DNA from: a virus
IMG/VR virus record: IMGVR_UViG_3300038369_000505
Coordinates: 1-28,205 of that record
DNA: 28,205 nt
Strand: one strand, 5' to 3'
The position numbers were made by a program, and so were the translations under genes. The number at the start of each line of letters is the position of its first letter. Within the stretch, counting starts at the first letter, position 1. The notes under the pieces are model-generated. The model ran no database searches. It saw only the letters and a program-made list of their open reading frames with translations, and had not been told where the DNA came from. This document shows, piece by piece, positions 7,459 through 22,890 of the stretch.

Positions 7459-9405
7459 ATGGGTAATTTTATAGGACCAGAACCGGTTAGAAGTTTTGCA
7501 CCATTGGCTGTAAAAGATGACTTTAGCGGTGATGGATCTACAACTACATTCGATCTATCTAGAGATATACCAGCTGGGGGTCAAAATAGTTTATTACTTT
7601 TTGTTGGCACAACTATACAAGAACCTGGCGTTGATTACACAATAGGTAATGATGGTTCAGGTAACCCTAGAAGAATAACATTTACCTCTGCACCTGCAAA
7701 TGGTACAAATAATATATTTGCTATTCATAGAGATAGAGAGACAGGAAGATTTACACCTGATGATAATTCAGTAGGTAACAGTCAACTAGAATCAACTGCT
7801 ATTACAGGATTTTCTAATGTGAGTGCTGCAGCTGGCGATAGTGTTCTAATATCAGACGCTTCAGATAGTGGTAATTTAAAAAAGACATTAGTTTCATCTT
7901 TAAATTCTCTTACAGGCACAGACCTAGTTAATGACACTTCACCTCAACTTGGTGGTGACTTAGATGTAAATAGTAATGATATTGTTTCTACTTCTAATGC
8001 TAATATTAGTTTATTACCAAACGGCACTGGTAAGGTAGTTATTGACGGTAATGGAAGTAGTGGCGGTGTATCTATTGATGATGGTAATATTGATATCAGA
8101 ACAGCAAATGGTGCTGTATCAAAAATAAAATTCTATTGTGAATCATCTAACGCACACGCTCAAACGCTTCAGGCACAACCTCACTCAGCTGCAAGTAGTG
8201 CTGTATTAACATTACCAGTAGCAACAGGAACTCTTGTAGGTACTGGAGACACTGGTTCAGTTTCAAATACAATGTTGGCAGGTTCAATCGCTGCTTCAAA
8301 ACTTGCAGGTAGTATTGGTAATGCAAAATTAAGTAATTCATCTATATCTGTTTCAGATGGTTCTAGTTCTACTGCAATCGCTTTAGGTGGTACTGCAACA
8401 TTTTCAGGTACTGCAAATGAGGTAGATGTTGCTGAGAGTTCAGGAACAATCACTATCGGTTTACCTAATGATATAGTTGTCGCAGGTAATCTAACTGTTA
8501 ATGGTACTACAACAACAATAAATACAACTAATCTTGCCGTTACGGATAATTTAGTTGAATTAAATCAAGGTCTTACTGGGGCTGCTTCTAATGATTCAGG
8601 TATTTTAATTGAAAGAGGTTCAACAGGTAATAATGCAATTATAGCTTGGGATGAAAGTGCTGATAGTTTCATAGTAGGTACTACAACTGCTACAGCTTCA
8701 GATACAGGTAATTTATCAATTACAGCTGCACCTTTTGCTGCTTCTACTATGTCTGCTACAGAATTAAGTTTGGGTGATGATGAAAAAATTAAACTAGGTG
8801 CAGGTAATGACTTAGAGATATTCCATGAGGCATCAAATAATAGAGGTATAATTAAAGAAAGTGGTACAGGAGATTTACATATTCAAGCAGATGATTTTTA
8901 TATAAAAAATGCTGCTGGAACTGAAACATTGTTTTATGCACTAGAAGATGGTGCGGTTGGTTTATACCATGATGACTCTGTTAAATTAGTAACCACTGCT
9001 GCTGGGGTTACGGTAACAGGAACAGTAACCGCAACACCACCTGCTGCTGGCGATATAGGTTCATTCTCATATTTTACTTTATTTTCTAAAGATAGTAATA
9101 ATCCTACTAATACAGATATTGATATTGGAGCAGAGGTTGCTGTTGCTAGTTATGAGACAGGTAATTTACATTTAGCAGCTAACTTTGATGATTTTGGAGG
9201 AGAAACTGGAGCAGCAGTTATTGGCGGTATGGGATTTGTTTTATCAGGCGCTAGGGCAATTACATCATCAAGTAATGCAAAGGCAGTAAGAACAACACTA
9301 ACAGGCACTTGGAGATTTATAGGTAAATGTGCTTACAGAAGCGGTGGTGGCGGTGGTAGTGCATACGCTCAATCTCAAAGTGCATTAGCAATAAGGATAT
9401 CATAA
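7459..9405 (+). CDS. Long tail fibre protein (paralogue 1)
   Basis: A 648-residue fibre. Residues about 5-95 form an N-terminal beta domain (GDGSTTTFDLS, EPGVDYTI, RRITFTSAPANGTN) of the kind that begins many marine phage fibres. The middle is shaft-like repeat sequence and includes SDASDSGNLKK, ANISLLPNGTGKVVIDG, and a block at residues about 344-425 (NLTVNGTTTTINTTN to GNLSITAAPF) that is nearly copied in the next gene. The C-terminus ends in GTWRFIG and a Gly-rich loop before ALAIRIS, a common fibre end. There is no S74 domain. AAGGAT precedes the ATG, and the stop overlaps the next ATG (TAATG). It is expected to be a trimer outside the particle, used for host contact. The fibre class is clear; the receptor is unknown. 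Confidence 0.85.
   Translation: MGNFIGPEPVRSFAPLAVKDDFSGDGSTTTFDLSRDIPAGGQNSLLLFVGTTIQEPGVDYTIGNDGSGNPRRITFTSAPANGTNNIFAIHRDRETGRFTPDDNSVGNSQLESTAITGFSNVSAAAGDSVLISDASDSGNLKKTLVSSLNSLTGTDLVNDTSPQLGGDLDVNSNDIVSTSNANISLLPNGTGKVVIDGNGSSGGVSIDDGNIDIRTANGAVSKIKFYCESSNAHAQTLQAQPHSAASSAVLTLPVATGTLVGTGDTGSVSNTMLAGSIAASKLAGSIGNAKLSNSSISVSDGSSSTAIALGGTATFSGTANEVDVAESSGTITIGLPNDIVVAGNLTVNGTTTTINTTNLAVTDNLVELNQGLTGAASNDSGILIERGSTGNNAIIAWDESADSFIVGTTTATASDTGNLSITAAPFAASTMSATELSLGDDEKIKLGAGNDLEIFHEASNNRGIIKESGTGDLHIQADDFYIKNAAGTETLFYALEDGAVGLYHDDSVKLVTTAAGVTVTGTVTATPPAAGDIGSFSYFTLFSKDSNNPTNTDIDIGAEVAVASYETGNLHLAANFDDFGGETGAAVIGGMGFVLSGARAITSSSNAKAVRTTLTGTWRFIGKCAYRSGGGGGSAYAQSQSALAIRIS
8481..8735 (+). repeat. 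Fibre module shared with 10286-10536 (copy 1)
   Basis: About 85 codons encoding NLTVNGTTTTINTTN through ERGSTGNNAI and AWDESADSFI to SITAAPF. A near copy lies in the next fibre at 10286-10536. The proteins match at most positions, and the order of motifs is the same. Confidence 0.85.
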
Positions 9406-11249
9406 TGGGATTAGACACATATATAGGAAGAGAACCAACAATCGGTGATTTAGAAAAACAAACTATTACAGGTGATAATAGTACAACTACATTTACCTTA
9501 GATTTCGCTGTTGGTGATACTGCACATATTTTAGTTATATCAAATGGTGTTGTATTAACACCAGGTACTGCTTATTCATTAAATGGTACAGGTACTCAAA
9601 TAACATTTTCTGTTGCACCTTCATCAAGTCAGTCTCACCATATATTATTCTTAGGTAAACAACTTCAAGTCATATCTAGTGTAATTGACGCAAATGGTCA
9701 AGAGTTTACTTTAGATGCTGATGGTGACACAAGCCTTACAGCTGATACAGACGATAAAATAGATATTAAGATAGGCGGATCAGATATTGGTTTCTTTAAT
9801 GCTTCAGGATTCACTACAACAGGAGGAGTCACCTCTGCTAGTTTTACAATCGGTAGTGCTGTAATAACTGAGTCAGAATTAGAAATATTAGATGGTGCTA
9901 CAGTTTCAACTGCTGAATTAAATGTATTAGATGGCATTCCTGCTACACTAACTGCTACAGAATTAGGATATGTTGATGGTGTCACCTCTGCTATTCAAAC
10001 ACAATTAGATGCTAAACAGGCAACTATTACAGGTTCTGCAACAACGATTGATACAGAATCTTTAACTGCAAATAGAGCAGTTATTTCTAATGGATCACAA
10101 AAAATTGCTGTAAGTGATGTAACCGATACTGAGTTAGGATATTTAGATGGAGTTACCTCTTCTGTTCAAACACAATTAGACGCAAAGGCAGGAACTGCTT
10201 CACCTACATTTACAGGAACAATAACAGCTGCACAAGCAAACTTTAGTGGTGATGTTGGTTTAACTGGTAGTGCAAACTTAACGATTGCAGGAAATTTAAC
10301 AGTAAATGGTACAACGACAACAGTTAATACTACAAACACTACTATTACCGATAATTTACTTGAGTTAAATAGTGGTGTAACCTCAAATGCTAACGACTGT
10401 GGTATTATTATTGAAAGAGGTTCAACTGGTAATAATGCAATTATGGCTTGGGATGAAAGTGCTGATGGATTTATATTTGGTACTACAACTGCGGCCGCAG
10501 ATGGCACAGGAGATTTAACAATCGCAGCTGCACCTTTAACTGTTAGTCAATTAGATGTAGGAGATGACGGTCAAATTAGACTTGGTGATTCTCAAGACTT
10601 ATTAATATTTCACGATAGTAGTAATGGTCTTAGTGTAATTAGAGATGCAGGTACTGGTGGTTTAGATATAAGAGCAAGTGCTTTAGCAATCGAGAATGAT
10701 GGCGGTACAGAAACTATGGCAACTTTCGCTGTTGATGGTGCTGTTTCTCTTTATCACGATAATACTCTTATATTTGCGACAGCTTCAGATGGTATTGATG
10801 TAACCGGTAAGGTTGATGCAAGTGGTGCTATTGAGGGTGTTGGTGCAACAATCACAGGTTCTACTGAACTAACTTCACTTGGTGTTGGTACTGCTGCTTC
10901 AGGAACTACTGGTGAGATAAGAGCAACTAATGAAATTACTGCCTACTATTCTTCAGATGTTGCACTAAAAGAAAATATTACAACAATAGATAATGCTTTA
11001 GATAAAATTAATTCTCTACAAGGTGTTAAATTTGACTGGACAGATGAGTATATTGAGTCTCGTGGCGGCGAAGATGGATATTTTGTTAGAAAACACGATA
11101 CAGGAATAATTGCTCAAGATGTTGAAAAAGTTTTACCTGAAATTGTTGCTGAAAGAGCAGACGGTTATAAAGGTGTCAAATATGAAAAACTTATGGGGTT
11201 AGTAATTCAAGCAATTAAAGAATTATCTAAAAAAATGGATGAGAAATAA
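9405..11249 (+). CDS. Long tail fibre with C-terminal S74 self-cleaving chaperone (paralogue 2)
   Basis: A 614-residue fibre. Residues 1-95 repeat the N-terminal beta domain of the preceding fibre (STTTFTLDF, PGTAYSLNG, ITFSVAPSSS). Two similar units (LGYVDGVTSAIQTQLDAK near 185-204 and LGYLDGVTSSVQTQLDAK near 242-261) form part of the shaft, followed by the NLTVNGTTTTVNTTN block shared with paralogue 1. Residues about 517-614 are an intramolecular chaperone of the S74 (endosialidase) family: SDVALKENI, then HDTGIIAQDVEKVLPEIV and a terminal helix. Ser517 and Lys522 have the spacing of the known Ser-Lys cleavage pair, so the chaperone is expected to fold the trimer and then cut itself off just before Ser517. 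It starts and ends with one-base stop/start overlaps. Confidence 0.9.
   Translation: MGLDTYIGREPTIGDLEKQTITGDNSTTTFTLDFAVGDTAHILVISNGVVLTPGTAYSLNGTGTQITFSVAPSSSQSHHILFLGKQLQVISSVIDANGQEFTLDADGDTSLTADTDDKIDIKIGGSDIGFFNASGFTTTGGVTSASFTIGSAVITESELEILDGATVSTAELNVLDGIPATLTATELGYVDGVTSAIQTQLDAKQATITGSATTIDTESLTANRAVISNGSQKIAVSDVTDTELGYLDGVTSSVQTQLDAKAGTASPTFTGTITAAQANFSGDVGLTGSANLTIAGNLTVNGTTTTVNTTNTTITDNLLELNSGVTSNANDCGIIIERGSTGNNAIMAWDESADGFIFGTTTAAADGTGDLTIAAAPLTVSQLDVGDDGQIRLGDSQDLLIFHDSSNGLSVIRDAGTGGLDIRASALAIENDGGTETMATFAVDGAVSLYHDNTLIFATASDGIDVTGKVDASGAIEGVGATITGSTELTSLGVGTAASGTTGEIRATNEITAYYSSDVALKENITTIDNALDKINSLQGVKFDWTDEYIESRGGEDGYFVRKHDTGIIAQDVEKVLPEIVAERADGYKGVKYEKLMGLVIQAIKELSKKMDEK
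10286..10536 (+). repeat. Fibre module shared with 8481-8735 (copy 2)
   Basis: This is the second copy of the module, encoding NLTVNGTTTTVNTTN through ERGSTGNNAI and AWDESADGFI to TIAAAPL. Long stretches such as the codons for RGSTGNNAI are nearly identical at the DNA level, a substrate for recombination between the two adjacent fibre genes. Confidence 0.85.
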
Positions 11250-12925
11250 TGACACTACAAGCTTCAGGTGCTATTTCACTATCTGATATAAAAAATGAAC
11301 ACGGTGGTGGTTCAACAAATATTGCATTAGGAAATTATAAAAAACAAATAGATAATGCAGATGGCTATGCTTACTATATAGTATCGTGGACAGGTCATCA
11401 CTTTCAGATTGCTGGCACTTCTCCGTTTACAACTTTAACTTTTTATGCACATACACACACGACAGATATATTTCTTTTATTAGATAGTAGTGTTACCGTA
11501 CCTGTTAATGTAACCACTACTATTACTACCGATGGTTCAAATTTGGTATCAAGTGGTGTTTCTAATAATGGTTCTACCTACAATGCAAGTAGTGCCTATC
11601 ATCGTGGATCATATACACAAATTCATATAAAATCTCTAGGTACAGCAACAGGTAATACAGGTACTGATACTTTCGATTCTTTTATATATCTATCAACAAA
11701 TCAATTACAAGTGCAAAGTGGTAGTGACTCATCTGCTAGGTATAATGCATTTAAAGCAACGCCTGCTACTGGCGAGGTTAAACATCATCAATCTTATTCT
11801 GATCTTGCATTTCCATCCGCTTTAGATGGTGGTAGTGAAGATGCAAAAGTAGGTGGCGGAACATTTTTCTCTACAAGTTCAACTTCATATCCGGGATTAA
11901 TTAAAAATGGTCAATCTTTAACAATGAAAGGCACAATGGAAACTGCACCTGGCGGTGTTTTTTCAGGTGGTGGTAATGCGATCTATCTATATTTTTCAGG
12001 TTATCAAATAACAAGATCAGACTCAAATAATAATACACACGGTCAGTCTTTTAGTGCCTTAGGGGCCCTTAGATTTGATAAAACAGGTATTAGTGGTGGT
12101 TGGACAAATAGTGGTTCAGGTTTTGCAAGTTTTTTTGCTGCTAATATACCTTCAACACCAAATGCTGCTACTGGAGGATTTACGACTTCGGGATGGTCTT
12201 TATCAGATACATCTTCGGGTTCTACTTATCAGGTTACCCTTACTAATAACACAGGTAATGATTATCTTCTCATTTCAAATAATTCACAAGATGGTACAAA
12301 AAATCTACCTTATTATTTTGCTTGGGGTGATTCTGGTGGTCAATTTGATTTTAGTACCACTAATAATGTGGGAACAGGTGGTTTAACAGAAAGATATGGT
12401 CAAAATCTTTACTCTCAGCTTACAATACAAAAAAATTCCTTTAATGGTTCAAATATAGGAACTCAAAATTTTTATGCATATCATACCTCAAGTGCAAATA
12501 GAGCAACTGTTATAACTCAACTTTTAGAATTATTTAATGAATTTGATGGTCAAGGAATAAATGGTGGTGACTTTAGAGATGAAGGAATAACTCCTGGAAA
12601 TTCTTATGGATTAGACGGAATAGCTAATAGTCTTAGAGCCCAAGAAATAACTACAGGAACTTTAAGAATATTTGACAATATTCAGCAAAGCTCTTCAACT
12701 GGTGGTGAACTAAATATTACATATTCAAACTATCATAGTGCAAGTGCTTTTGGTGGACCTACATATGGTTCTACCTCAGCTCAGGGTGCTACAAACTTTA
12801 GTCCAACTATAACAAAGGATGGTCGATATACAGGAAGTGATACGGATGCTTCAAGATATAATGCTCCTGTTAAATATTATAAACAAAATATGAAATTTTC
12901 ACACTATTACGATACACAGGCTTAG
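11249..12925 (+). CDS. Putative receptor-binding/fibre protein with SGAIS N-terminal motif
   Basis: A 558-residue protein. The N-terminus ASGAISLSDIKNEHGG matches a short motif common at the start of fibre-tip or adhesin-like proteins in marine phages and found again in the gene at 13172. The rest is rich in Ser, Thr, Gly, Asn, Tyr and His, with no shaft repeats like those of the upstream fibres. It contains clusters such as TFYAHTHTTDIF, SSTSYPGLIKNGQSLTMKG and YLYFSGYQITRSDSN, which look like beta-structured surface protein. There is no signal peptide, S74 domain or known enzyme motif. It follows the S74 fibre with a one-base overlap, fitting a separate tip or short fibre. The function is inferred from context and composition. 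Confidence 0.65.
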   Translation: MTLQASGAISLSDIKNEHGGGSTNIALGNYKKQIDNADGYAYYIVSWTGHHFQIAGTSPFTTLTFYAHTHTTDIFLLLDSSVTVPVNVTTTITTDGSNLVSSGVSNNGSTYNASSAYHRGSYTQIHIKSLGTATGNTGTDTFDSFIYLSTNQLQVQSGSDSSARYNAFKATPATGEVKHHQSYSDLAFPSALDGGSEDAKVGGGTFFSTSSTSYPGLIKNGQSLTMKGTMETAPGGVFSGGGNAIYLYFSGYQITRSDSNNNTHGQSFSALGALRFDKTGISGGWTNSGSGFASFFAANIPSTPNAATGGFTTSGWSLSDTSSGSTYQVTLTNNTGNDYLLISNNSQDGTKNLPYYFAWGDSGGQFDFSTTNNVGTGGLTERYGQNLYSQLTIQKNSFNGSNIGTQNFYAYHTSSANRATVITQLLELFNEFDGQGINGGDFRDEGITPGNSYGLDGIANSLRAQEITTGTLRIFDNIQQSSSTGGELNITYSNYHSASAFGGPTYGSTSAQGATNFSPTITKDGRYTGSDTDASRYNAPVKYYKQNMKFSHYYDTQA

Positions 12926-12927
12926 AT

Positions 12928-13155
12928 ATGACAACAGAAAAAAAATATGTTACCAAGAACGGTTTTGTAATTAGAGAGGTAAAACGCAAAAGTGGAACTA
13001 CGGATACCTATATATATCACAAAGATGACCCTATGAAATATATGCACGAAGGCGGAGCACCTAATATAAGTGAAGAAAAGGTAAAACGAGATATAGAAAA
13101 ACTCCAAAGAGAGCAGGCATTCGAATTAGAGTGTTCTAACGAGATGAATAAATAA
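12928..13155 (+). CDS. Small charged protein of unknown function
   Basis: A 75-residue protein starting 3 bases after the preceding stop. The N-terminal half has two likely strands (KYVTKNGFVIREVKRKSGTT, TDTYIYHKDD). The C-terminal part (SEEKVKRDIEKLQREQAFELE) is a strongly charged amphipathic helix or short coiled coil. I do not recognise a family. It lies between two adhesin-like genes that share an N-terminal motif, so it could be a chaperone or connector for one of them. That is inference only. Its last codons (aat aaa taa) form one of two tandem late-promoter-like motifs for the next gene. Confidence 0.68.
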   Translation: MTTEKKYVTKNGFVIREVKRKSGTTDTYIYHKDDPMKYMHEGGAPNISEEKVKRDIEKLQREQAFELECSNEMNK

Positions 13156-13163
13156 TATAAATA
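13147..13163 (+). promoter_or_regulatory. T4-type late promoter motif pair before the glycine-rich gene
   Basis: A perfect TATAAATA lies at 13156-13163, with a one-mismatch AATAAATA directly before it at 13147-13154. In T4, transcription begins a few bases after this box. Here the ATG of the next gene is at 13172, only 8 bases beyond, and no ribosome binding site is visible, so the transcript would be almost leaderless. Confidence 0.6.
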
Positions 13164-13171
13164 ATAGTATT

Positions 13172-14305
13172 ATGGCAACACCATCAGGCGCAATTAGTTT
13201 TGAAGATATAAGAACAGAGTTTGGTCAACCACAGGCCAACAACTCTCTTAATGGTTACTATAGCGGTGGATCTGCATTAGGGGCACCTCTGGCAAATGTA
13301 CCAGCAAGTGGAGCAATCTCAATGTCTGAGTTAAGAATTATTGAAAAAACATCAGGTAGTGGTAATAAAGTCAATGCTGCTAGTGGTGTGCCAAATGGTA
13401 CTCATTTAATATTTTTTACTAGCGATATTTGTTATTCAGATGATTCTGCTCAAGGTGCTCTTCAAGTGCCTGGTAGTAGAACAGGTGCAACGACAGTAGT
13501 TATTAATCATAACATAGCTGGTAAAGGTGGTGGAGGTGGTAATGGTCAAGCCGTATCCAGTAATACAAGTAACCACGATGCCTCACCGAGTGGTTCTGCT
13601 GGTAATGGTGCAAGTGGAGGTCCTGCTGTAGTATTAGGTTCTCCTACACATTTAGATAACAATTCAAATATTCGTGCTGGTGCTGGTGGAGGCGGCGGAG
13701 GTTCTGCTTTCGGAGGTGAACACGGATTTGCCTCAAATGGTATAACTTGTAATTCAACTAATTTAAAAGGTATCATCACAAATACCAATGGTAATACAGC
13801 ATTTTTGATAGGTTCAGCTGGGGGAGGTGCTTCTGGTGGTAACAGTCAAATTAATAATAGTGCTGATGGTGCTGCTGGTAATGCTGGTGGCGGAGGCCAC
13901 GCAACTAATTTTACAAGTTCTAATAGAAATATTTATGTGACCGGTACACAATGTGGTTCTAATGGAATATATTATACAGGTAGACGAGTAAGAATGATTG
14001 CAAATAGTAATGCTGGAACCACAAACTCTCAAGCTGGAGGTGGTTCAGGTATAAGTAGTGCTTGTAATGGTGGTGCTGGTGGTGTTGATGGTAATGCTGG
14101 GGCATCAACAAATGCTTCTAGTAATTTAAGTCACCCTACAATAAGTGATAATGGCAACTCTGTAAGTAGTACATCAGCAACAGGAAGTCCAGACGGAGGT
14201 TCTGGAGGCGGCGCTGGTAATGCAATACAAGGTTGGAATTCATTTAGTATAACCGTACACGGTATCGTTTCAACTCAAGGCACATTTACAGGAGGAATAA
14301 CTTAA
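13172..14305 (+). CDS. Glycine-rich adhesin-like protein (gp38-like in style)
   Basis: A 377-residue protein. It opens with PSGAISFEDIRTEFGQ, the same motif as in the gene at 11249, and carries a second shorter copy, SGAISMSELRI, near residue 47. From about residue 118 on it is dominated by polyglycine islands (GKGGGGGNG, GAGGGGGGSAFGG, GSAGGGASGG, GNAGGGGHA, QAGGGSG, GGSGGGAGNA) separated by variable Asn/Ser/Thr loops. Such islands recall the polyglycine sandwich of T4-like gp38 adhesins, in which Gly strands form the core and the loops bind receptor; this is analogy, not proven homology. Two cysteine-containing loops (TSDICYS, GITCNST) may be exposed. The late promoter abuts the start and there is no clear ribosome binding site. 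Confidence 0.7.
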   Translation: MATPSGAISFEDIRTEFGQPQANNSLNGYYSGGSALGAPLANVPASGAISMSELRIIEKTSGSGNKVNAASGVPNGTHLIFFTSDICYSDDSAQGALQVPGSRTGATTVVINHNIAGKGGGGGNGQAVSSNTSNHDASPSGSAGNGASGGPAVVLGSPTHLDNNSNIRAGAGGGGGGSAFGGEHGFASNGITCNSTNLKGIITNTNGNTAFLIGSAGGGASGGNSQINNSADGAAGNAGGGGHATNFTSSNRNIYVTGTQCGSNGIYYTGRRVRMIANSNAGTTNSQAGGGSGISSACNGGAGGVDGNAGASTNASSNLSHPTISDNGNSVSSTSATGSPDGGSGGGAGNAIQGWNSFSITVHGIVSTQGTFTGGIT

Positions 14306-14544
14306 TGGCAATAACATGGAAAACTGCTGAAACAAATGAAGGTGGTACTGAAATAGAATTTTCTGATGGAACTTATAAAGTGTATATTAGAATGAGTGAA
14401 AAATTTGAGAGTCTTAAAACCTCTGGTACATTAGAGTTTGAGGATGTTGATAAATATTTAGCGATTCACCAAGATCATATAAGAGCTATGTTTACCGATC
14501 AAACTGGTGATGACTTTAAGGATGAAGGTGTATTTTTATTATGA
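14305..14544 (+). CDS. Unknown 79-aa acidic protein, first gene of the accessory cassette
   Basis: A 79-residue protein starting at an ATG that overlaps the stop of the glycine-rich gene by one base. The N-terminal half is beta-like (ITWKTAETNEGGTEIEFSDG, TYKVYIRMSE). The C-terminal half is likely helical and acidic (EDVDKYLAIHQDHIRAMF). I do not recognise a family. It opens a run of six genes that overlap one another, so it is probably translated together with the genes after it. Nothing in it points to an enzyme. Confidence 0.68.
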   Translation: MAITWKTAETNEGGTEIEFSDGTYKVYIRMSEKFESLKTSGTLEFEDVDKYLAIHQDHIRAMFTDQTGDDFKDEGVFLL

Positions 14545-14870
14545 AATATCAAAAGGGTGAACTGCCTGATCAACCTGAAGCTAAGATAAATGTATTAGAA
14601 GATTATGTAACCAAACAAATACAATATCGAACTAAAGGTAGAGTTTTAAAATATTTAACAGAATTTGAATTTTCTGAAATTGTATATGATGGTGAATTTA
14701 TTAATTCTGAAACAAAAGAAACAATACTATGGTGTGAGTATGGAGATATTGTAATTAATAATGTTAGAACTATGCGAGAAGATAATACTTTAATATGTTC
14801 TGCTCTAGGAAAAAAATATACTATGAAAAGTTTGAACCCTTCTGGAGGAAAAATTTATGCCTTTATATAA
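14541..14870 (+). CDS. Unknown 109-aa protein
   Basis: A 109-residue protein that begins in an ATGA overlap with the preceding stop, suggesting coupled translation. It looks like a small mixed alpha/beta domain: a helix near residues 18-45 (LEDYVTKQIQYRTKGRVLKYL) followed by strands (FSEIVYDGEFIN, ETILWCEYGDIVINNV, YTMKSLNPSGGKIYAF). I know no family for it. Its 3' end overlaps the next gene by 14 bases and contains that gene's strong ribosome binding site. Confidence 0.66.
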   Translation: MKYQKGELPDQPEAKINVLEDYVTKQIQYRTKGRVLKYLTEFEFSEIVYDGEFINSETKETILWCEYGDIVINNVRTMREDNTLICSALGKKYTMKSLNPSGGKIYAFI

Positions 14871-15636
14871 AAGATTAGATGTAGCCAGTGAAGCACAAAT
14901 AAACGAACCTATACTAGAAGAAACTATTGAAAAGGCAACAACTGGTAATGTTAGAACTTCTAAAGTAGAATTACTACAAAAAAATATAGTCGTTAGATGT
15001 TTACCAAATATATACTATCATACTATTGCAGAGGGCGAAGGTCCTATATTTAACAATGGTGCGATACCAGAATATTGTAGAACTAATTTATCAGTACAAG
15101 TAATATATCCAAATGGCATATGGTTTCCTTTAAGTAATGGTGATGAAGTAAATCTTCCTGCTGGTTCTTATCAAACACTTAACGATAACAATAATTTTGT
15201 AATGAAATATAGAAATGAAATTTGTACTACAAAAGCAGGTACACTTTTAGATGATATAAAATATGATGGTGAAGAAATTTATTTTCCCAAAAGTGCTCAA
15301 TATACAGATAAAAGAGCTGACTTTAGAGGTGGGTTTTATTTGTTTATGGGTATCATTCACGATATTACATATACAGCACAGGCTTGGTATCCTAAAATAG
15401 TCAATCATTATACAGAAAAATCATTTACTATAACAAAAGCCGATAATGTTATACAGCATTTTTTGTATATAACTTCAGGTATGGTAAATGTAAGTGAAGG
15501 AATAAAAAATAGAAATTTTAAAAAAGAATCTTGTCTTTTACTACAAAAAGATAAAACTTATACAATATCACAAATTGGTGATGAACCTATGAATGTTTAT
15601 GAATTTAAATCTGTTAAGAAAGCCGCTACTAACTAA
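14857..15636 (+). CDS. Unknown 259-aa protein with a possible cupin-like C-terminal domain
   Basis: A 259-residue protein with a good ribosome binding site, GGAGGA at 14844-14849, seven bases before ATG 14857. It is strongly beta-like, with many aromatic residues. Residues about 40-115 read as one beta domain (NIVVRCLPNIYYHTIAEGEG, LSVQVIYPNGIWFPLSNGDEVNLPAGSY). Residues about 190-252 (FTITKADNVIQHFLYITSGM, VNVSEGIKNRNFKKESCLLL, EPMNVYEFKSV) have the rise-and-fall pattern of a cupin barrel, but a full metal-binding His/Glu set is not obvious, so the cupin idea is weak. No signal peptide is seen. Its last 44 bases overlap the desaturase frame. It may be structural, regulatory or a metabolic partner; I cannot choose. 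Confidence 0.65.
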   Translation: MPLYKRLDVASEAQINEPILEETIEKATTGNVRTSKVELLQKNIVVRCLPNIYYHTIAEGEGPIFNNGAIPEYCRTNLSVQVIYPNGIWFPLSNGDEVNLPAGSYQTLNDNNNFVMKYRNEICTTKAGTLLDDIKYDGEEIYFPKSAQYTDKRADFRGGFYLFMGIIHDITYTAQAWYPKIVNHYTEKSFTITKADNVIQHFLYITSGMVNVSEGIKNRNFKKESCLLLQKDKTYTISQIGDEPMNVYEFKSVKKAATN

Positions 15637-16378
15637 AAGAGGTCTGAATAATGTTAAATTAGCAGGTCGAGAAGCGTGGGAGTCCACAGTTTTTCAACTT
15701 ACAATTTATACACTTGCAGTATGTTTTTTGTTATTCTATCCTGTTAATTATATATTAGCACCATTTACTTCTATTTCAGTTTCACTTGTTATGGGATTTG
15801 CAATAGGTATATTTCTACACAGAGGTTTTGTACATAAACAATTTAAGACTTACTCTTGGTTACAAAAACCTGCCTTGTTTATTGCAAGTATGGTAATGTT
15901 TACAACTTCTATTCGTTGGTCTTTTGCTCATATGTATCATCATAAATTTGTAGATACAGACCAAGACCCACATAATCCTTTAAGTATAGGTCTAATAGGC
16001 TCTGCATTTCCTATATTTTGGAATAAGTTTCCTGTATCAATGCGAGATATGCTAAGACTTAAAAGTCATTTTAAAGACCCATATCATAGATTTATGGAAA
16101 AATATTTTGCATATGTAGTTATAGGATTTTATAGTTTACTTGCATTAATCAGTTTTGAGTTTTTTGTTTACTTTGTATTGGGTTGTGCTTTGACTAATAT
16201 ATTTGTTGCTATGGTAAATCAACTTCACGCTTGGGAAAATCCTGAAGGTGTATGGTGGTCGTTGATATCTGGCGGAGAGGGTTTTCATAATAAACACCAC
16301 GAGAATATGAGAGACTATCAAGATGGCAGTCCTTTTATCTGGTTTATAGAGATGGTAAAAAAGAATGAACGAAGATGA
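15593..16378 (+). CDS. Membrane fatty-acid (acyl) desaturase, delta-9-like
   Basis: A 261-residue integral-membrane di-iron desaturase, expected to use O2 and electrons to put a double bond into a fatty acyl chain in the host membrane. All three histidine boxes are present: HRGFVH (76-81), HMYHH (113-117) followed by TDQDPHN, and GEGFHNKHH (228-236). A further His in NQLHAW (212) is near the extra ligand position of this family. Hydrophobic spans near 33-75, 94-108 and 172-208 fit its four membrane segments. Length is normal for short bacterial and cyanophage forms. Lipid desaturases are known in cyanophages. The start is uncertain: ATG 15593 or 15599 lies inside the previous gene, while the only good ribosome binding site (AAGAGGT) points to an out-of-frame ATG at 15651. 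The 3' end overlaps the next gene by 14 bases. The electron donor is not encoded nearby. Confidence 0.9.
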   Translation: MFMNLNLLRKPLLTKRGLNNVKLAGREAWESTVFQLTIYTLAVCFLLFYPVNYILAPFTSISVSLVMGFAIGIFLHRGFVHKQFKTYSWLQKPALFIASMVMFTTSIRWSFAHMYHHKFVDTDQDPHNPLSIGLIGSAFPIFWNKFPVSMRDMLRLKSHFKDPYHRFMEKYFAYVVIGFYSLLALISFEFFVYFVLGCALTNIFVAMVNQLHAWENPEGVWWSLISGGEGFHNKHHENMRDYQDGSPFIWFIEMVKKNERR

Positions 16379-16913
16379 AAGAGTAAAAAAACTTATAAGA
16401 AGTAATGTAGTAGGCACAGGCCATAGTGATTTATTTGTAAAAGAGACAAATTGGCGAAGTGAACCTAAACAATCAGAAACTTATTGTAAAGAGGTAGTCA
16501 AAAAATTAAAAGATCAAGACCCAACTCAATGTGAATTCTTTAGAAGTCCTTATCCTCTAAATCAAAACTCTTGTATAAAAATAGAAAATGATAAAGACTA
16601 TATAGAGGAACTTGAAAGAATGGTTTATGAATTAAGAGATCAAGTTAATTATAAGGATGAAGAATGGTATTGGTACTGGATACCTGAAAGATTAAAATAT
16701 AAATTATTATCTGAGGAGCAAAAACAAGAAATAGATTTATTAAAAGATGAAAATGCTCAACTTAAATCTAAAAATATGCATTATTTAAAAAATATTGCAA
16801 GATGGCGAAAAGTTGCAAGACACTTAAAAGAAATTATATTAACACTAGATTATGAAACAAATAATACTTCACACAGGAAGGTGCGGCTCGACAAAACTAT
16901 GGGCGATACTTGA
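16365..16913 (+). CDS. Unknown 182-aa protein with C-terminal coiled coil
   Basis: A 182-residue protein overlapping the end of the desaturase by 14 bases. Residues about 1-70 are polar with two Cys (ETYCKEVV, TQCEFF). Residues about 75-100 (DYIEELERMVYELRDQV) and 115-165 (QEIDLLKDENAQLKSKN and onward) are predicted coiled coil by heptad spacing, joined by an aromatic patch, EEWYWYWIPERL. There is no membrane segment. Its last 62 bases overlap the sulfotransferase-like gene in another frame, so its final 20 residues are encoded twice over. The function is unknown. A scaffold that links cassette proteins, or a minor structural protein, would fit. Confidence 0.65.
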   Translation: MNEDERVKKLIRSNVVGTGHSDLFVKETNWRSEPKQSETYCKEVVKKLKDQDPTQCEFFRSPYPLNQNSCIKIENDKDYIEELERMVYELRDQVNYKDEEWYWYWIPERLKYKLLSEEQKQEIDLLKDENAQLKSKNMHYLKNIARWRKVARHLKEIILTLDYETNNTSHRKVRLDKTMGDT

Positions 16914-17694
16914 TAGGTATTATCGTGCTAAATACAATAATGATACCAAAGAAGGATCATTAAAAAGATTAGATAGAAGATATAATCTTCTCGAAGATAA
17001 CTATTGGGGATTATTTGAGTTTTATGCTCCTAGATTTTCTGAGTTAAGAATAAAGTACCCATATCTAACAATAAGAGTTAGAAAGAAAAATGGTCTTTAT
17101 CCTAAGTTTGATATTACTCCTGAACAAGATTTGAATGAAACTAAACTTAGATTTGAGTTGTGGGACTATGTTCACCATATCACTTGTGATCATTTTGGAA
17201 AAAACTATTTGATAAAGTATCCTCCTTATATGCCAACTTATGACGAGGAACAAAAATATTTTAAAGGCGAAATATCTTTAGATGATTTTCCTCTTCATAT
17301 ACCACCTACTTATGGCACAGATTTTATAGTACTAAGAAGGAGAAATAAAATAAAACAAGGTATATCTAGATGGTTAACTAGAAAGTCAGGTCTTATGATA
17401 CGAGAAAGAGATAATGATTTACGAGATATTGTGGATGATTATAAGAATAAGTTTTCATATAGATTGTCAAATGAAGTTCCTTCTTGGGCCGTTCCTATAT
17501 CATTGATAGATAATTTGATGAATAGACTTGTAAGTCATTTAAAGAAAGTATCTACAAATATAAGAGAGATATATTATGAAGATTTTGAAGATATGAAACC
17601 CTATGAAGTCTTAGAATTTATGGGTATTACTGATTATGAGAGATATTTAGATAAGAATTTTACTATACCATTTATTAAAACCTGGACAAGATAA
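16852..17694 (+). CDS. Sulfotransferase-like protein
   Basis: A 280-residue protein with features of PAPS-dependent sulfotransferases, cytosolic enzymes that move a sulfuryl group from PAPS to a sugar, lipid or protein hydroxyl. Residues 3-16 (QIILHTGRCGSTKL) match the N-terminal strand and 5'-phosphosulfate loop (usual form GRSGST). Residues 157-175 (DFIVLRRRNKIKQGISRWL) match the 3'-phosphate site, with Arg162 or Arg163 and Ser172 as candidate contacts. YYEDF at 241-245 followed by VLEFMGI matches the conserved late YEDL segment. Length is usual for bacterial forms. The substrate is unknown; lipopolysaccharide, capsule or a lipid are candidates. It starts inside the preceding gene (62-base overlap), has no clear ribosome binding site, and is the last gene before a late promoter. 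A diverged nucleotide-binding protein is the main alternative. Confidence 0.72.
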   Translation: MKQIILHTGRCGSTKLWAILDRYYRAKYNNDTKEGSLKRLDRRYNLLEDNYWGLFEFYAPRFSELRIKYPYLTIRVRKKNGLYPKFDITPEQDLNETKLRFELWDYVHHITCDHFGKNYLIKYPPYMPTYDEEQKYFKGEISLDDFPLHIPPTYGTDFIVLRRRNKIKQGISRWLTRKSGLMIRERDNDLRDIVDDYKNKFSYRLSNEVPSWAVPISLIDNLMNRLVSHLKKVSTNIREIYYEDFEDMKPYEVLEFMGITDYERYLDKNFTIPFIKTWTR

Positions 17695-20466: not shown

Positions 20467-20700
20467 ATGGCTAAATTTGATGATGCCCAAACTATAACGG
20501 GTGAAGTAAATATAAATTATGTATTGACTGCTTACTCAAAAAAACTGAATAGTATTCTGGGTGAGAATATTTTATTACAGGCGAAAGTGTCTGAGTTGGA
20601 AGAACAAAATAGTAATTTAAGTAATGAATTAACTAAATTATATGCAAAGGTAAATAATGGCAACAGTAATAAAACCAAAACGAAGCGAGTCCGCAGGTAG
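20467..20700 (+). CDS. Small coiled-coil protein with basic tail
   Basis: A 77-residue protein. Residues about 20-62 (AYSKKLNSILGENILLQAKV, SELEEQNSNLSNELTKLYAK) form a clear coiled coil with leucines and isoleucines at heptad positions. The last 12 residues are basic ([10 protein letters not shown]). It overlaps the next gene by 44 bases. A small trimeric coiled coil next to fibres could be an assembly chaperone, as gp57A is in T4 or whisker-type proteins are, but no homology is claimed. Confidence 0.7.
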   Translation: MAKFDDAQTITGEVNINYVLTAYSKKLNSILGENILLQAKVSELEEQNSNLSNELTKLYAKVNNGNSNKTKTKRVRR

Positions 20701-21217
20701 TGTTCCAGGTACAAGTGATATTGTAGTTGGAGAAATGGCAGTTAATACTGCTGATAAAAAAATATATGTAAGAGATTCTAGTGATAATATTGTTTCTTTA
20801 GGTGGCGAAGGTGTAACTGGCGCAACATCAAACGCTGTGACTAGACAAAATCTTTTAACTGGTACTACATCAGATGCTACTGAAACAGAAATATTTGTTG
20901 GTGGTGTTTCTAACACTAGGGTAAGTATTGCAAATAATTCAACTGTAATGTATAGTGTTGATATCGTTGCAAGAAGAACAGATTCAGATGGTGTCGGTGC
21001 AGGATATCATCTTAAAGGTGTAATAGATCATAACACAGGAACTACTGCTGATGTAGGTAATCTGTATGAAATTATACTTGCTGAGGATAATACTGCATTG
21101 GCTGTTGATGTTGGTGCCGATGCAACTAATGACGCAATTTATGTAAAAGTAACCGGTATAGCAGGACATACTTATAGGTGGGCTGCTTTACTAACAACTG
21201 TGGAGGCGAAAGAATAA
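20657..21217 (+). CDS. Structural protein with adaptor N-terminus and beta C-terminal domain
   Basis: A 186-residue protein. Residues 1-45 ([39 protein letters not shown]) are the same kind of N-terminal adaptor as in the fibre at 18322 and in many phage fibres. Residues about 65-186 form a beta domain: [60 protein letters not shown] know this C-terminal pattern from other marine phage structural proteins, without a set function. Its stop overlaps the next ATG (TAATG), and GGAGG inside its end serves the next gene. It is probably a virion surface or fibre-connector subunit. Confidence 0.74.
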
Positions 21218-22077
21218 TGGCAAGAACGAGAAGTGTAAGTATTGACGGTGTATCAGGTAAGGTCGATATTGATCCGATAACCGATCAACCCACGATTACA
21301 AGTGGTGCTTCAGATGATTTAATTCTAGTATCAGATACCTCTGATTCTGGAAATATGAAAAAAATAACTATTGCAAATGCAGGTCTAACTGGACCTGCAG
21401 GACCTGCTGGGCCTGCTGGGCCTGCAGGACCCGCTGGACCTGCTGGACCTACAGGACCTGCTGGTAATGATGGTAATGATGGGTCGACTGGACCTACAGG
21501 ACCTGCTGGGCCTGCTGGGCCTACTGGACCTGCTGGACCTGCTGGTAGTGATGGTAATGATGGAGGCACTGGACCTACAGGACCTGCTGGACCTACTGGG
21601 CCTGCTGGTGGTTTTACTACTAACTCTGATGCTCAAGTTAATTCATTGGGTGTTGGTACTGCTGGTTCTGGTACTGCAGGTGAGATTAGGGCAACAAATA
21701 ATATTACTGCTTTCTATTCAGATGAGAGATTAAAAAATGTTCTTGGTGAAATAGATAACGCATTAGAGAAAGTAAAAGAATTACGAGGTGTTTACTTTGA
21801 AGAAAATGAAACTGCAAAGTCTTTAGGTTATGATAATGATAAAAGACAAGTAGGAGTAATTGCTCAAGAGGTAGAAAAAGTATTACCAGAAGTGGTAACT
21901 CAAGCACCGATAGACGAAAAATACATAACAGTTTGGTATGATAAGTTAGTTCCTTTATTGATTGAAGCAATAAAAGAATTATCAGCGAAAGTAGAGGAAC
22001 TAGAAATTAAACCAAATAGAAAATTAGATTTAGGTGAACAAGGTTTTAGTCCTGAAGATTTAAAAAAAGAGGAATAA
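21217..22077 (+). CDS. Collagen-like short fibre with C-terminal S74 chaperone
   Basis: A 286-residue protein. I chose ATG 21217 because it overlaps the previous stop by one base and follows GGAGG at 21202-21206; an upstream ATG at 21178 lies inside the previous gene. Residues 1-55 are an N-terminal segment with [12 protein letters not shown], shared with the fibre at 7459. Residues 56-130 are 25 unbroken Gly-X-Y triplets, mostly GPA, GPT, GND and GSD, as in a collagen triple helix. Residues about 131-167 lead into an S74 chaperone ([19 protein letters not shown], then [17 protein letters not shown]). Ser168 and Lys173 are the expected self-cleavage pair. The trimer would thus be a collagen rod topped by a short tip, matured by loss of its last ~119 residues. 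Confidence 0.88.
21382..21606 (+). repeat. Collagen Gly-X-Y tandem repeat
   Basis: A 225-base run of 9-base units encoding 25 Gly-X-Y triplets, mainly variants of ggacctgct. It is much richer in G and C than the surrounding sequence and is prone to length change by slippage or recombination. Confidence 0.92.
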
Positions 22078-22080
22078 CAT

Positions 22081-22890
22081 ATGGCTGTACCAAGTTCAAA
22101 AGCAACACTAAAAGAGTATTGTCTAAGAGCATTAGGTAAACCTGTAATTGAAATTAATGTAGATGATGACCAGGTTGATGATAGATTAGACGAAGCACTA
22201 CAATACTTTTCACAATACCACTATGATGGTATTGAAAGAATGTATATGAAATATCAGGTAACTGCTGATGATATTACTAGAGCAACTGCAACTGAAAGTG
22301 TTGGTTCTGGAACGGATGGTTCTGTATCAAATTCATTTACAAATCAAACTAATTTTATAGTAATGCCATCTCCGGTATTATCTGTTTTAAATATTTTTCC
22401 GTTTAACGATAAATCGAATTTAAATATGTTTGATATTAGATATCAAATGAGATTAAATGATCTTTATGATTTTTCTTCTACCTCAATATTACACTATGAA
22501 ATGACTATGAGACATTTAGATTTTCTAGATCATATCTTGGTCGGTGAAAAACCAATAAACTTTAATATGCATAATAACAGATTGTATATTCATATGGATT
22601 GGAAAAACGATATAAATGCCGGCGAGTACATAATTATAGAATGTTATAGAAAGTTAGACCCAGATACTTATACGGATGTTTATGATGATATGTTTTTAAA
22701 AAGATATGCTACTGCTTTGGTTAAGCAACAATGGGGTGCTAATTTATCTAAATTTCAAGGTATTCAAATGTTAGGTGGGGTTTCATTAAATGGTGGAGAA
22801 ATATATTCACAAGCACTAGAGGAAAAGAGAAAACTAGAAGAGGAGATCCGAACTAACTTTGAAACGCCTGTCAATTATATGATAGGATAA
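22081..22890 (+). CDS. 13: Neck protein gp13 (head completion)
   Basis: A 269-residue homologue of T4 gp13, which with gp14 forms the neck at the portal vertex after DNA packaging and readies the head to bind the tail. The N-terminus (LKEYCLRALGKPVIEINVDD, DQVDDRLDEALQYFSQYHYDG) is the conserved opening of this family in marine T4-like phages. Further marks are FNMHNNRLYIHMDW and YDDMFLKRYATALVKQQWG. It is somewhat shorter than T4 gp13 (about 309). GAGGAA lies 9 bases before the start. It is followed, after 3 bases, by gp14. The call rests on sequence pattern plus gene order. Confidence 0.9.
   Translation: MAVPSSKATLKEYCLRALGKPVIEINVDDDQVDDRLDEALQYFSQYHYDGIERMYMKYQVTADDITRATATESVGSGTDGSVSNSFTNQTNFIVMPSPVLSVLNIFPFNDKSNLNMFDIRYQMRLNDLYDFSSTSILHYEMTMRHLDFLDHILVGEKPINFNMHNNRLYIHMDWKNDINAGEYIIIECYRKLDPDTYTDVYDDMFLKRYATALVKQQWGANLSKFQGIQMLGGVSLNGGEIYSQALEEKRKLEEEIRTNFETPVNYMIG

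What the first reader, a model, noticed from the sequence alone, without database searches (positions are those of the whole stretch)
21217..22077. Collagen rod joined to a self-cleaving S74 chaperone
25 unbroken Gly-X-Y triplets are followed by a short linker and an S74 domain with Ser168 and Lys173. The chaperone would register and start the collagen triple helix from the C-terminal end and then leave, so the mature fibre would be a bare collagen rod with a tiny tip. In bacteria without prolyl hydroxylation this is a compact way to fold collagen.
Basis: partly seen in the sequence, partly recalled or inferred. Interest (0 to 1): 0.5.

Follow-up and report, generated by a model that had tools for sequence, protein, structure and literature searches.

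The report
Phage collagen fibre with self-cutting cap
A marine bacterial virus makes a short collagen rod ending in a self-cutting folding helper, and its relatives with lysine-bearing collagen rods carry an animal-like enzyme predicted to hydroxylate and sugar-coat collagen, a modification known from animals and giant viruses.

Summary
Window 21217-22077 encodes a 286-aa protein: 55-aa N-terminal module, 26 unbroken Gly-X-Y triplets (reader said 25), a conserved 34-aa tip, and an S74 chaperone with Ser168/Lys173. Both Pfam families score over cut-off; the chaperone model matches the solved S74 folds. The gene sits directly before neck gene gp13 of a T4-like marine myophage. Collagen+S74 fibres and collagen repeats in pelagimyophages are already in print, so the window protein alone is a new member of a known kind; cleavage, trimer and place on the virion are inferred.

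Relatives at this locus show three architectures and very different rod lengths. Lys-free rods like the window's lack any PLOD-like gene nearby. Lys-bearing rods, many with an S74 cap, are followed by a ~600-aa protein whose three domains best match procollagen galactosyltransferase, the LH3 glucosyltransferase and mimivirus lysyl hydroxylase: 29 of 32 Lys-rich loci with at least 6 kb downstream, against 0 of 29 Lys-poor loci. Cultured Synechococcus phages S-PRM1 and S-CAM9 and Roseobacter phage CRP-6 have the pair. I found no description in the library searched. 'Collagen without hydroxylation' fits this fibre, probably not its Lys-bearing relatives.

The parts
21202..21206 (+). GGAGG ribosome-binding site of the collagen-S74 gene
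   Evidence: read from sequence; judged by eye
21217..22077 (+). collagen-S74 fibre gene, 286 aa (P0001)
21217..21381 (+). N-terminal 55-aa module (anchor / N-cap of the rod); resembles the pre-collagen module of the Roseobacter phage CRP-6 fibre
   Evidence: 23 loci; 42% over 50 aa, E 9e-6
21382..21615 (+). 26 Gly-X-Y triplets, residues 56-133; Pro only in X, mostly Ala/Thr/Asp in Y, no Lys
   Evidence: DNA tandem array
21616..21717 (+). conserved tip, residues 134-167, ending ...[13 protein letters not shown] before the predicted cut
   Evidence: (A1)
21718..22074 (+). S74 intramolecular chaperone, residues 168-286; Ser168 codon 21718-21720, Lys173 codon 21733-21735
9405..11249 (+). second S74-capped fibre (614 aa, no collagen) with the same kind of tip (SLGVGTAASGTTGEIRATN); S74 core at 10953-11147
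20657..21217 (+). upstream 186-aa fibre-like protein, conserved neighbour
22081..22890 (+). gp13-like head-tail adaptor directly downstream

Best explanation
The gene encodes a short trimeric fibre of a T4-like marine myophage. Three chains are brought together and put in register at the C-terminus by the S74 chaperone; a 26-triplet collagen helix (about 22 nm) winds up from there towards the N-terminal module; once the trimer is correct, Ser168, activated by Lys173, cuts the chain before itself and the chaperone leaves. The mature fibre is N-terminal module + collagen rod + 34-residue conserved tip that keeps the chains capped. The rod is of the Lys-free, unmodified type (GPA/GPT). It belongs to a wider family of capped phage collagen fibres in which Lys-bearing members are probably hydroxylated and glycosylated by a phage-encoded three-domain enzyme encoded just downstream. 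Shown here: sequence, domains, predicted fold of the chaperone, conservation, gene order, co-occurrence. Inferred: trimer, helix, cleavage, virion location, enzyme action on the fibre.
For: Both domains over Pfam cut-off. Ser and Lys of the dyad invariant in 23 of 23 aligned caps: 22 chosen from the 40 rows plus the window's second S74 protein. Chaperone model: MyRF ICA Z 8.8 (115 aligned, 4.2 A), EndoNF 7.2 (102, 4.0 A), T5 pb1 6.1 (94, 3.3 A), GA-1 appendage 5.4 (90, 4.1 A), next row 2.5. In the 10 short-form relatives rod make-up and length differ (24-32 triplets) while N-module and cap stay 82-95% and 82-94% identical, as expected of a length-tolerant rod. 22 of the 46 loci have gp13 after the capped gene.
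Against: No experiment. The tip is predicted with pLDDT about 31 as a monomer, so its trimer fold is unproven. The T5 folding-sensor Arg lies 14 residues before the Ser, here a conserved Arg158 lies 10 before it, and L012/L014 (identical caps) have Leu there. A 22-nm unhydroxylated GPA/GPT helix may be only marginally stable. In four loci the N-module protein has no S74 at all, so the chaperone is not indispensable for phage collagen.
Confidence: 0.72

Rival explanations
1. It is a collar whisker: a collagen replacement of T4 fibritin (wac), attached at the neck, not a host-binding tail fibre.
For: Gene lies immediately before gp13, the place of wac in T4 (12, wac, 13, 14, 15, 16, 17, 18), and the window order 13, 14, 15, 16, 17, 18 is the same. 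Like fibritin it would be a thin trimeric rod set in register by a C-terminal trimeriser.
Against: No fibritin match in Pfam. In T4 gene 12 (short tail fibre) is next door as well. Pelagimyophage genomes fill this region with many fibre genes, called a host recognition cluster (PMC7029224), so position says little.
Confidence: 0.2
2. It is a shrunken adhesin: a longer collagen fibre, or two adjacent collagen genes, collapsed by recombination between the repeats, leaving rod and cap without the binding part.
For: At the same locus relatives have a long chain with inserts plus S74 (L017, 118 triplets) or two genes: N-module-collagen without S74, then a separate short collagen-S74 protein (L019, L020, L022, L040). 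DNA repeats make such collapse easy.
Against: The short form is kept open in 10 loci besides the window with 24-32 triplets and different repeat make-up, so it is maintained rather than decaying; direction of change was not tested by a tree.
Confidence: 0.25
3. The S74 domain does not cut and stays as the distal head, itself the binding part.
For: Cleavage untested; the sensor Arg spacing differs from T5.
Against: Ser/Lys dyad invariant in 23 of 23 rows; cutting is described for the characterised S74 fibres (PMC4690869).
Confidence: 0.08

Closest known systems
T5 L-shaped tail fibre pb1 and K1F endosialidase (S74 / CIMCD intramolecular chaperones)
   Same: C-terminal S74 domain, Ser-x4-Lys dyad, same fold by model; chaperone follows the trimer and is cut off
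   Different: There the chaperone folds a beta-structured head that binds the host; here it caps a collagen rod with only a 34-aa tip
Polinton-like virus fibres with collagen repeats fused to C-terminal S74 (PMC12220804, passages)
   Same: Same two-domain logic, collagen then S74
   Different: Viruses of protists; no collagen-modifying enzyme mentioned in the passages seen
Collagen repeats in pelagimyophage structural operons (PMC7029224, passages)
   Same: Same phage group and region; 'triple collagen repeats' listed among putative receptor-binding proteins
   Different: No S74 cap, rod lengths or modification genes in the passages seen; glycosyltransferases of the region are read there as LPS-related
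E. coli prophage EPclA/EPclB collagen side tail fibres (PMC3368898, passages)
   Same: Phage collagen rods shown to be trimers, with a C-terminal trimerising domain
   Different: PfC domain instead of a self-cutting S74; 0 occurrences of S74 or chaperone in the text
Animal PLOD/LH3 + COLGALT1 and mimivirus L230/R699/R655 (for the enzyme in Lys-bearing relatives)
   Same: All three activities' domains and the glucosyltransferase catalytic residues
   Different: Single ~600-aa chain in tailed phages, order galactosyltransferase-glucosyltransferase-hydroxylase; Lys607 where LH3 has Arg in the alignment

Membership tests
Peptidase_S74 (PF13884) intramolecular chaperones | profile match over curated cut-off | tested here: met
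   55 bits vs 22, residues 168-228
Peptidase_S74 (PF13884) intramolecular chaperones | Ser-x4-Lys catalytic dyad at the domain's first residue | tested here: met
   S168/K173; invariant columns S37 and K42 in A1
Peptidase_S74 (PF13884) intramolecular chaperones | fold of the S74/ICA domain | tested here: met
   model block means 81-94 over most of the domain; best four entries are the S74/ICA structures, Z 8.8-5.4 against 2.5 for the next
Peptidase_S74 (PF13884) intramolecular chaperones | folding-sensor Arg from a neighbouring chain | tested here: inconclusive
   Arg158 conserved but 10, not 14, residues before the Ser; Leu in L012/L014
Peptidase_S74 (PF13884) intramolecular chaperones | self-cleavage and release | not testable with these tools
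   needs protein
Collagen-like proteins (PF01391) | uninterrupted Gly-X-Y | tested here: met
   26 triplets, 40.7 bits vs 27.2
Collagen-like proteins (PF01391) | triple helix | not testable with these tools
   needs CD/EM
T4 fibritin (wac) | position before gene 13 | tested here: met
T4 fibritin (wac) | fibritin sequence family (coiled coil + foldon) | tested here: not met
   no fibritin family among Pfam hits up to E 0.01
Collagen hydroxylysine glucosyltransferase (PLOD GT, PF25342), for relatives, not the window | profile match and metal/catalytic residues (R699 D83/D86, E114, D162/D163, N218 named in PMC11838735) | tested here: met
   PF25342 at 98-176 bits vs 27 in the proteins; D281, D284, E310, D359, D360, N413 invariant in 33 of 33; the residue correspondence is my reading by motif
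Procollagen galactosyltransferase (GT25/COLGALT), for relatives | GT25 profile and closest solved structure COLGALT1 | tested here: met
   PF01755 over cut-off; COLGALT1 E 4e-27 by profile, Z 23.5, 207 aligned, 2.3 A
Procollagen lysyl hydroxylase, for relatives | HxD...H iron triad in a 2OG-oxygenase fold nearest to lysyl hydroxylases | tested here: met
   H548, D550, H595 invariant; mimivirus L230 E 3e-13, Z 20.0, 173 aligned, 2.5 A, against 16.0 for algal prolyl hydroxylase
Procollagen lysyl hydroxylase, for relatives | Arg binding the 2OG carboxylate (recalled for LH3) | tested here: not met
   Lys607 in 33 of 33 where human LH3 shows Arg in the alignment; prolyl hydroxylases use Lys there (recalled), so the residue hydroxylated is not settled by sequence. 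I therefore call it lysyl-hydroxylase-like, acting by co-occurrence with Lys-rich rods

The most novel reading that the evidence does not exclude
Marine tailed phages of bacteria run the animal collagen pathway: one phage-encoded polypeptide hydroxylates lysines in the Y position of the phage's own collagen tail fibres and adds galactose and then glucose, giving bacterial-virus fibres up to about 440 nm long coated with glucosyl-galactosyl-hydroxylysine, while an S74 cap registers many of them and then leaves the chain. The window's Lys-free rod is the unmodified member of this family. Part of what is read as LPS glycosyltransferases and orphan 2OG oxygenases in marine phage genomes would be fibre-modifying enzymes.
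Probability: 0.7. Interest if true: 0.85.

Novelty: new variant of a known kind. Interest (0 to 1): 0.62.

Why it matters
A self-removing trimeriser is a compact recipe for registered collagen in bacteria. More important, the relatives suggest that lysine hydroxylation and glycosylation of collagen exists in bacterial viruses, with the substrate and a single-chain enzyme side by side. That would move the known range of this modification beyond animals and giant viruses, give a function to 'hypothetical' and '2OG-Fe(II) oxygenase' genes of cyanophages and roseophages, and offer a bacterial system for making hydroxylated, glycosylated collagen. It is directly testable on cultured phages.

Tried and rejected
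Vertebrate-type prolyl hydroxylation of the window rod: rejected, no Pro in Y (0 of 26 triplets) and no 2OG or PLOD-like gene found in the window. The 2OG-oxygenase clusters of HTVC008M and Mosig, which sit in the same place before gp13, as partners of collagen: not supported, both genomes have no Pfam Collagen match. Fibritin membership: no family match. N-terminal 55 aa in named phages: no tblastn match. A junction query for collagen-tip-S74 in named phages gave no record at 80% coverage, but BLAST's low-complexity filter hides collagen, so this is no evidence of absence. The antisense 'collagen' ORF 21285-21569 (-) is a mirror of the repeat, not a gene. No fibritin chain appeared; not counted as a test.

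Limits of my counts. Regular expressions missed some S74 ends: L037/L038 (SDPALK, NAKE) were scored '-' although the sequences or 19 show the cap; L007 and L009 were missed (tip variant EGRFT). A1 uses 22 of the 40 rows (the window row among them; duplicates, fragments and several near-identical rows left out) plus the window's second S74 protein. A2 uses 33 of 53 distinct enzyme sequences (64 ORFs); cultured-phage sequences were left out of it. In some searches the collagen of record G017 was not classed for Lys; one search counted it as not Lys-rich. Fisher values (1e-9; 3e-6) treat related contigs as independent and are therefore too small. All 37 distances measured are same-strand; one locus with both domains, L114, has the enzyme on the opposite strand. 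L123, L131 and L158 have Lys-rich collagen, 6 kb or more downstream, and no enzyme. L001 and L002 carry the same protein.

Full report
WHAT IS THERE. The gene at 21217-22077 (+) encodes 286 aa. Residues 56-133 are 26 Gly-X-Y triplets in one frame: 13 GPA, 5 GPT, 3 GND and five others; Pro is in X 18 times and never in Y; there is no Lys. Residues 168-286 are an S74 chaperone starting exactly at Ser168 (Pfam 55 bits against a cut-off of 22; Collagen 40.7 against 27.2). Between them is a 34-residue stretch...[26 protein letters not shown], that is nearly invariant in relatives. The rod's DNA is a tandem array of period 9 with a higher-order unit of 72-81 bases.

CONTEXT. The window is a 28,205-base virus record. 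Downstream of the gene lie gp13, gp14, gp15, small and large terminase and tail sheath homologues of T4-like phages; the nearest named DNA is Pelagibacter phage Mosig, Methylophilales phage Melnitz and Pelagibacter phage HTVC008M at 69-72% identity over part of the query. In pelagimyophages the stretch before the neck genes is described as a hypervariable host recognition cluster with tail fibres and glycosyltransferases, and collagen repeats are listed among its putative receptor-binding domains (PMC7029224, passages). In T4 the two genes before 13 are 12 and wac. The window has a second, non-collagen fibre with the same kind of tip and an S74 cap, 9405-11249, so tip plus S74 is a module put on different rods.

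THE CAP. An AlphaFold2 model of tip + S74 from 23 sequences is confident over the chaperone (block means 81-94 over residues 41-130 of the model) and not over the tip (31-33), as expected if the tip folds only as a trimer. Its best matches are the solved S74/ICA domains: MyRF Z 8.8, EndoNF 7.2, T5 pb1 6.1, GA-1 appendage 5.4; the next row is 2.5. In T5, Ser1264 with Lys1269 cuts after trimer formation is sensed through an Arg of the neighbouring chain (PMC4690869, section 3.7). Ser and Lys are invariant here; Arg158 is conserved except in L012/L014, but at a different spacing.

RELATIVES AND ROD LENGTH. Of 46 IMG/VR loci found with the protein, 22 have gp13 straight after the capped gene. Three arrangements occur at that one place: (a) short single chains, 24-32 triplets in all, in 10 loci besides the window; (b) a long single chain with inserts (L017, 118 triplets in 11 runs, open at its start); (c) two genes, an N-module-collagen protein of 613-715 aa without S74 (97-125 triplets) followed by a 219-231-aa collagen-S74 protein with another N-terminus (L019, L020, L022, L040). 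So rod length is evolutionarily loose, and collagen in these phages does not always depend on an S74 on the same chain. Elsewhere a close version of the same cap (79% identical over 124 aa in L033) ends rods of 450-514 triplets (L023, L026, L028-L033, L044), which at 0.286 nm per residue (recalled value) would be about 390-440 nm.

THE UNEXPECTED PART. Those giant rods carry about a hundred Lys, all in Y. Downstream of them lie a 2OG-FeII_Oxy_3 gene, an FkbM methyltransferase gene and a 618-622-aa gene with Pfam GT25 and PLOD-GT domains (L030 and L033; GT25 and PLOD-GT also in L026, and L046). Against the PDB that protein's N-terminal part matches procollagen galactosyltransferase 1, its middle LH3 and mimivirus R699, its C-terminal part mimivirus lysyl hydroxylase L230 and the LH3 oxygenase domain (phmmer; same for S-CAM9; by profile LH3 4e-56, R699 2e-41, COLGALT1 4e-27, L230 3e-13). 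A model (mean pLDDT 89.8) gives residues 1-210 COLGALT1 Z 23.5 (207 aligned, 2.3 A), 208-429 LH3 glucosyltransferase domain Z 31.2 (215, 1.6 A), 431-615 L230 Z 20.0 (173, 2.5 A). The residues reported as metal-binding or catalytic in R699 (D83/D86, E114, D162/D163, N218; PMC11838735, passages) correspond by motif (my reading) to D281/D284, E310, D359/D360 and N413, invariant in 33 of 33; the iron triad H548, D550, H595 is invariant too. Lys607 replaces the Arg of LH3, which leaves some doubt about the residue hydroxylated.

DOES IT GO WITH LYSINE? Forward: of 24 loci found with the enzyme, 13 show a same-strand collagen ORF with 10 or more Lys in Y upstream, one (L094) a glycine-rich frame with a single Lys, and 10 none; 6 of those 10 have under 1.2 kb upstream and the other four 1.9-3.4 kb. 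Reverse: 79 loci found with a Lys-type collagen query; in 12,216 triplets there are 3,913 Lys in Y and 1 in X. Of the 32 with at least 6 kb downstream, 29 carry both PLOD-GT and hydroxylase domains (25 of 28 distinct collagens); all 37 measured distances are same-strand, 16-5,649 bases after the collagen stop. Control: Lys-poor collagen loci of the first search, 0 of 29 with the enzyme, 0 of 15 with at least 4 kb downstream; Lys-rich ones of that search, 7 of 13 (7 of 9 with at least 4 kb, the two others being L035/L036 with only 5 Lys). Whole records: of 26, the enzyme is in 9, all 9 with Lys-rich collagen; the tenth Lys-rich record (L028) ends 656 bases after the collagen gene; 0 of 11 other collagen records and 0 of 5 without collagen. 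The contigs are tailed phages where it can be seen: terminase in 18 of 30 records. In cultured phages the order is fibre - small gene - 2OG - 2OG - enzyme in S-PRM1 and S-CAM9 (fibres of 1,825 and 1,831 aa with S74 and 23 and 22 Lys in Y) and fibre - small gene - enzyme in CRP-6 (99 triplets, 26 Lys in Y, no S74). S-8S56 has a fibre end with 24 Lys in Y, S74 and the enzyme. The cyanophage caps are only about 37% identical to the window's, so there the family tie is at the level of S74, not of a near copy. A scan of bacterial and archaeal genomes found the enzyme once, on a Marinimicrobia MAG contig. Enzymes differ down to 39% identity to L033's while the pairing holds.

WHAT IS IN PRINT. Collagen+S74 fibres: polinton-like viruses (PMC12220804, passages). 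Phage collagen trimers: EPclA (PMC3368898, passages). A review says that giant viruses can hydroxylate and glycosylate collagen (PMC8968730, passages). One AMG survey notes viral prolyl 4-hydroxylase with cryptic use and collagen in tail fibres (PMC9301287, passages). The CRP-6 paper has no 'collagen' or 'hydroxylase' in its main text (PMC6918029, passages). A catalogue of injection-system fibres names S74 and collagen shafts in different fibre groups (PMC12923769, passages). My searches for phage collagen lysine modification (open-licence PMC only) listed no paper describing it; I read listings and passages, not every paper, and subscription papers and preprints were not searched.

JUDGEMENT. 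Alone it is a new member of a known kind: an S74-capped phage fibre with a collagen rod. Its likely working (C-terminal registration, helix, cut before Ser168) rests on homology. That claim is strong as co-occurrence and homology, untested as chemistry, and does not apply to the window's own rod. The label 'new variant' is given for the family so described; the window protein by itself would be 'new member'.

Noticed in passing
L033:8408-10273; L030:8032-9885; L102:18001-19839 (S-CAM9); L103:10130-11896 (CRP-6): Three-domain protein (COLGALT1-like, LH3-glucosyltransferase-like, lysyl-hydroxylase-like) downstream of Lys-in-Y collagen fibres in marine tailed phages.
   Followed up: yes
L028:57-5624, L033:387-5465 and similar: Capped phage collagen rods of 450-514 triplets, about 390-440 nm if fully helical.
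   Followed up: partly
L037:1373-3159: A 2OG-FeII_Oxy_3 gene overlaps the stop of a Lys-free collagen-S74 gene (59 triplets); its substrate is open since this rod has neither Lys nor Pro in Y.
   Followed up: partly
L033:7249-8411, L030:6874-8035, L026:8016-9241: A stand-alone 2OG oxygenase and an FkbM-type methyltransferase sit between the Lys-rich collagen gene and the three-domain enzyme in these loci; role unknown.
   Followed up: no
L019, L020, L022, L040 before gp13: The fibre is split: an N-module collagen protein without S74 and a separate short collagen-S74 protein, raising the question whether the second helps fold the first.
   Followed up: partly
window 9405-11249: Second S74-capped fibre sharing the tip pattern SLGVGTAASGTTGEIRATN with the collagen fibre; a reusable tip-plus-cap module.
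   Followed up: partly
window 15593-16378: Fatty acid desaturase-like gene (PF00487, 32.1 bits) inside the fibre region, among proteins without PHROG matches (11249-17694).
   Followed up: no
L049:10942-13181 (HTVC008M), L050:6894-10749 (Mosig): Clusters of four 2OG-Fe(II)/phytanoyl-CoA-type oxygenase genes occupy the place just before gp13 where the window has its collagen fibre; these genomes have no Pfam Collagen match.
   Followed up: partly
L185:10001-11818: The three-domain enzyme on a Candidatus Neomarinimicrobiota MAG contig, possibly a phage contig binned with the host.
   Followed up: no
window 21285-21569 (-): Antisense frame of the repeat also reads as GPA/GPV collagen; mirror artefact of GGACCTGCT repeats.
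   Followed up: yes
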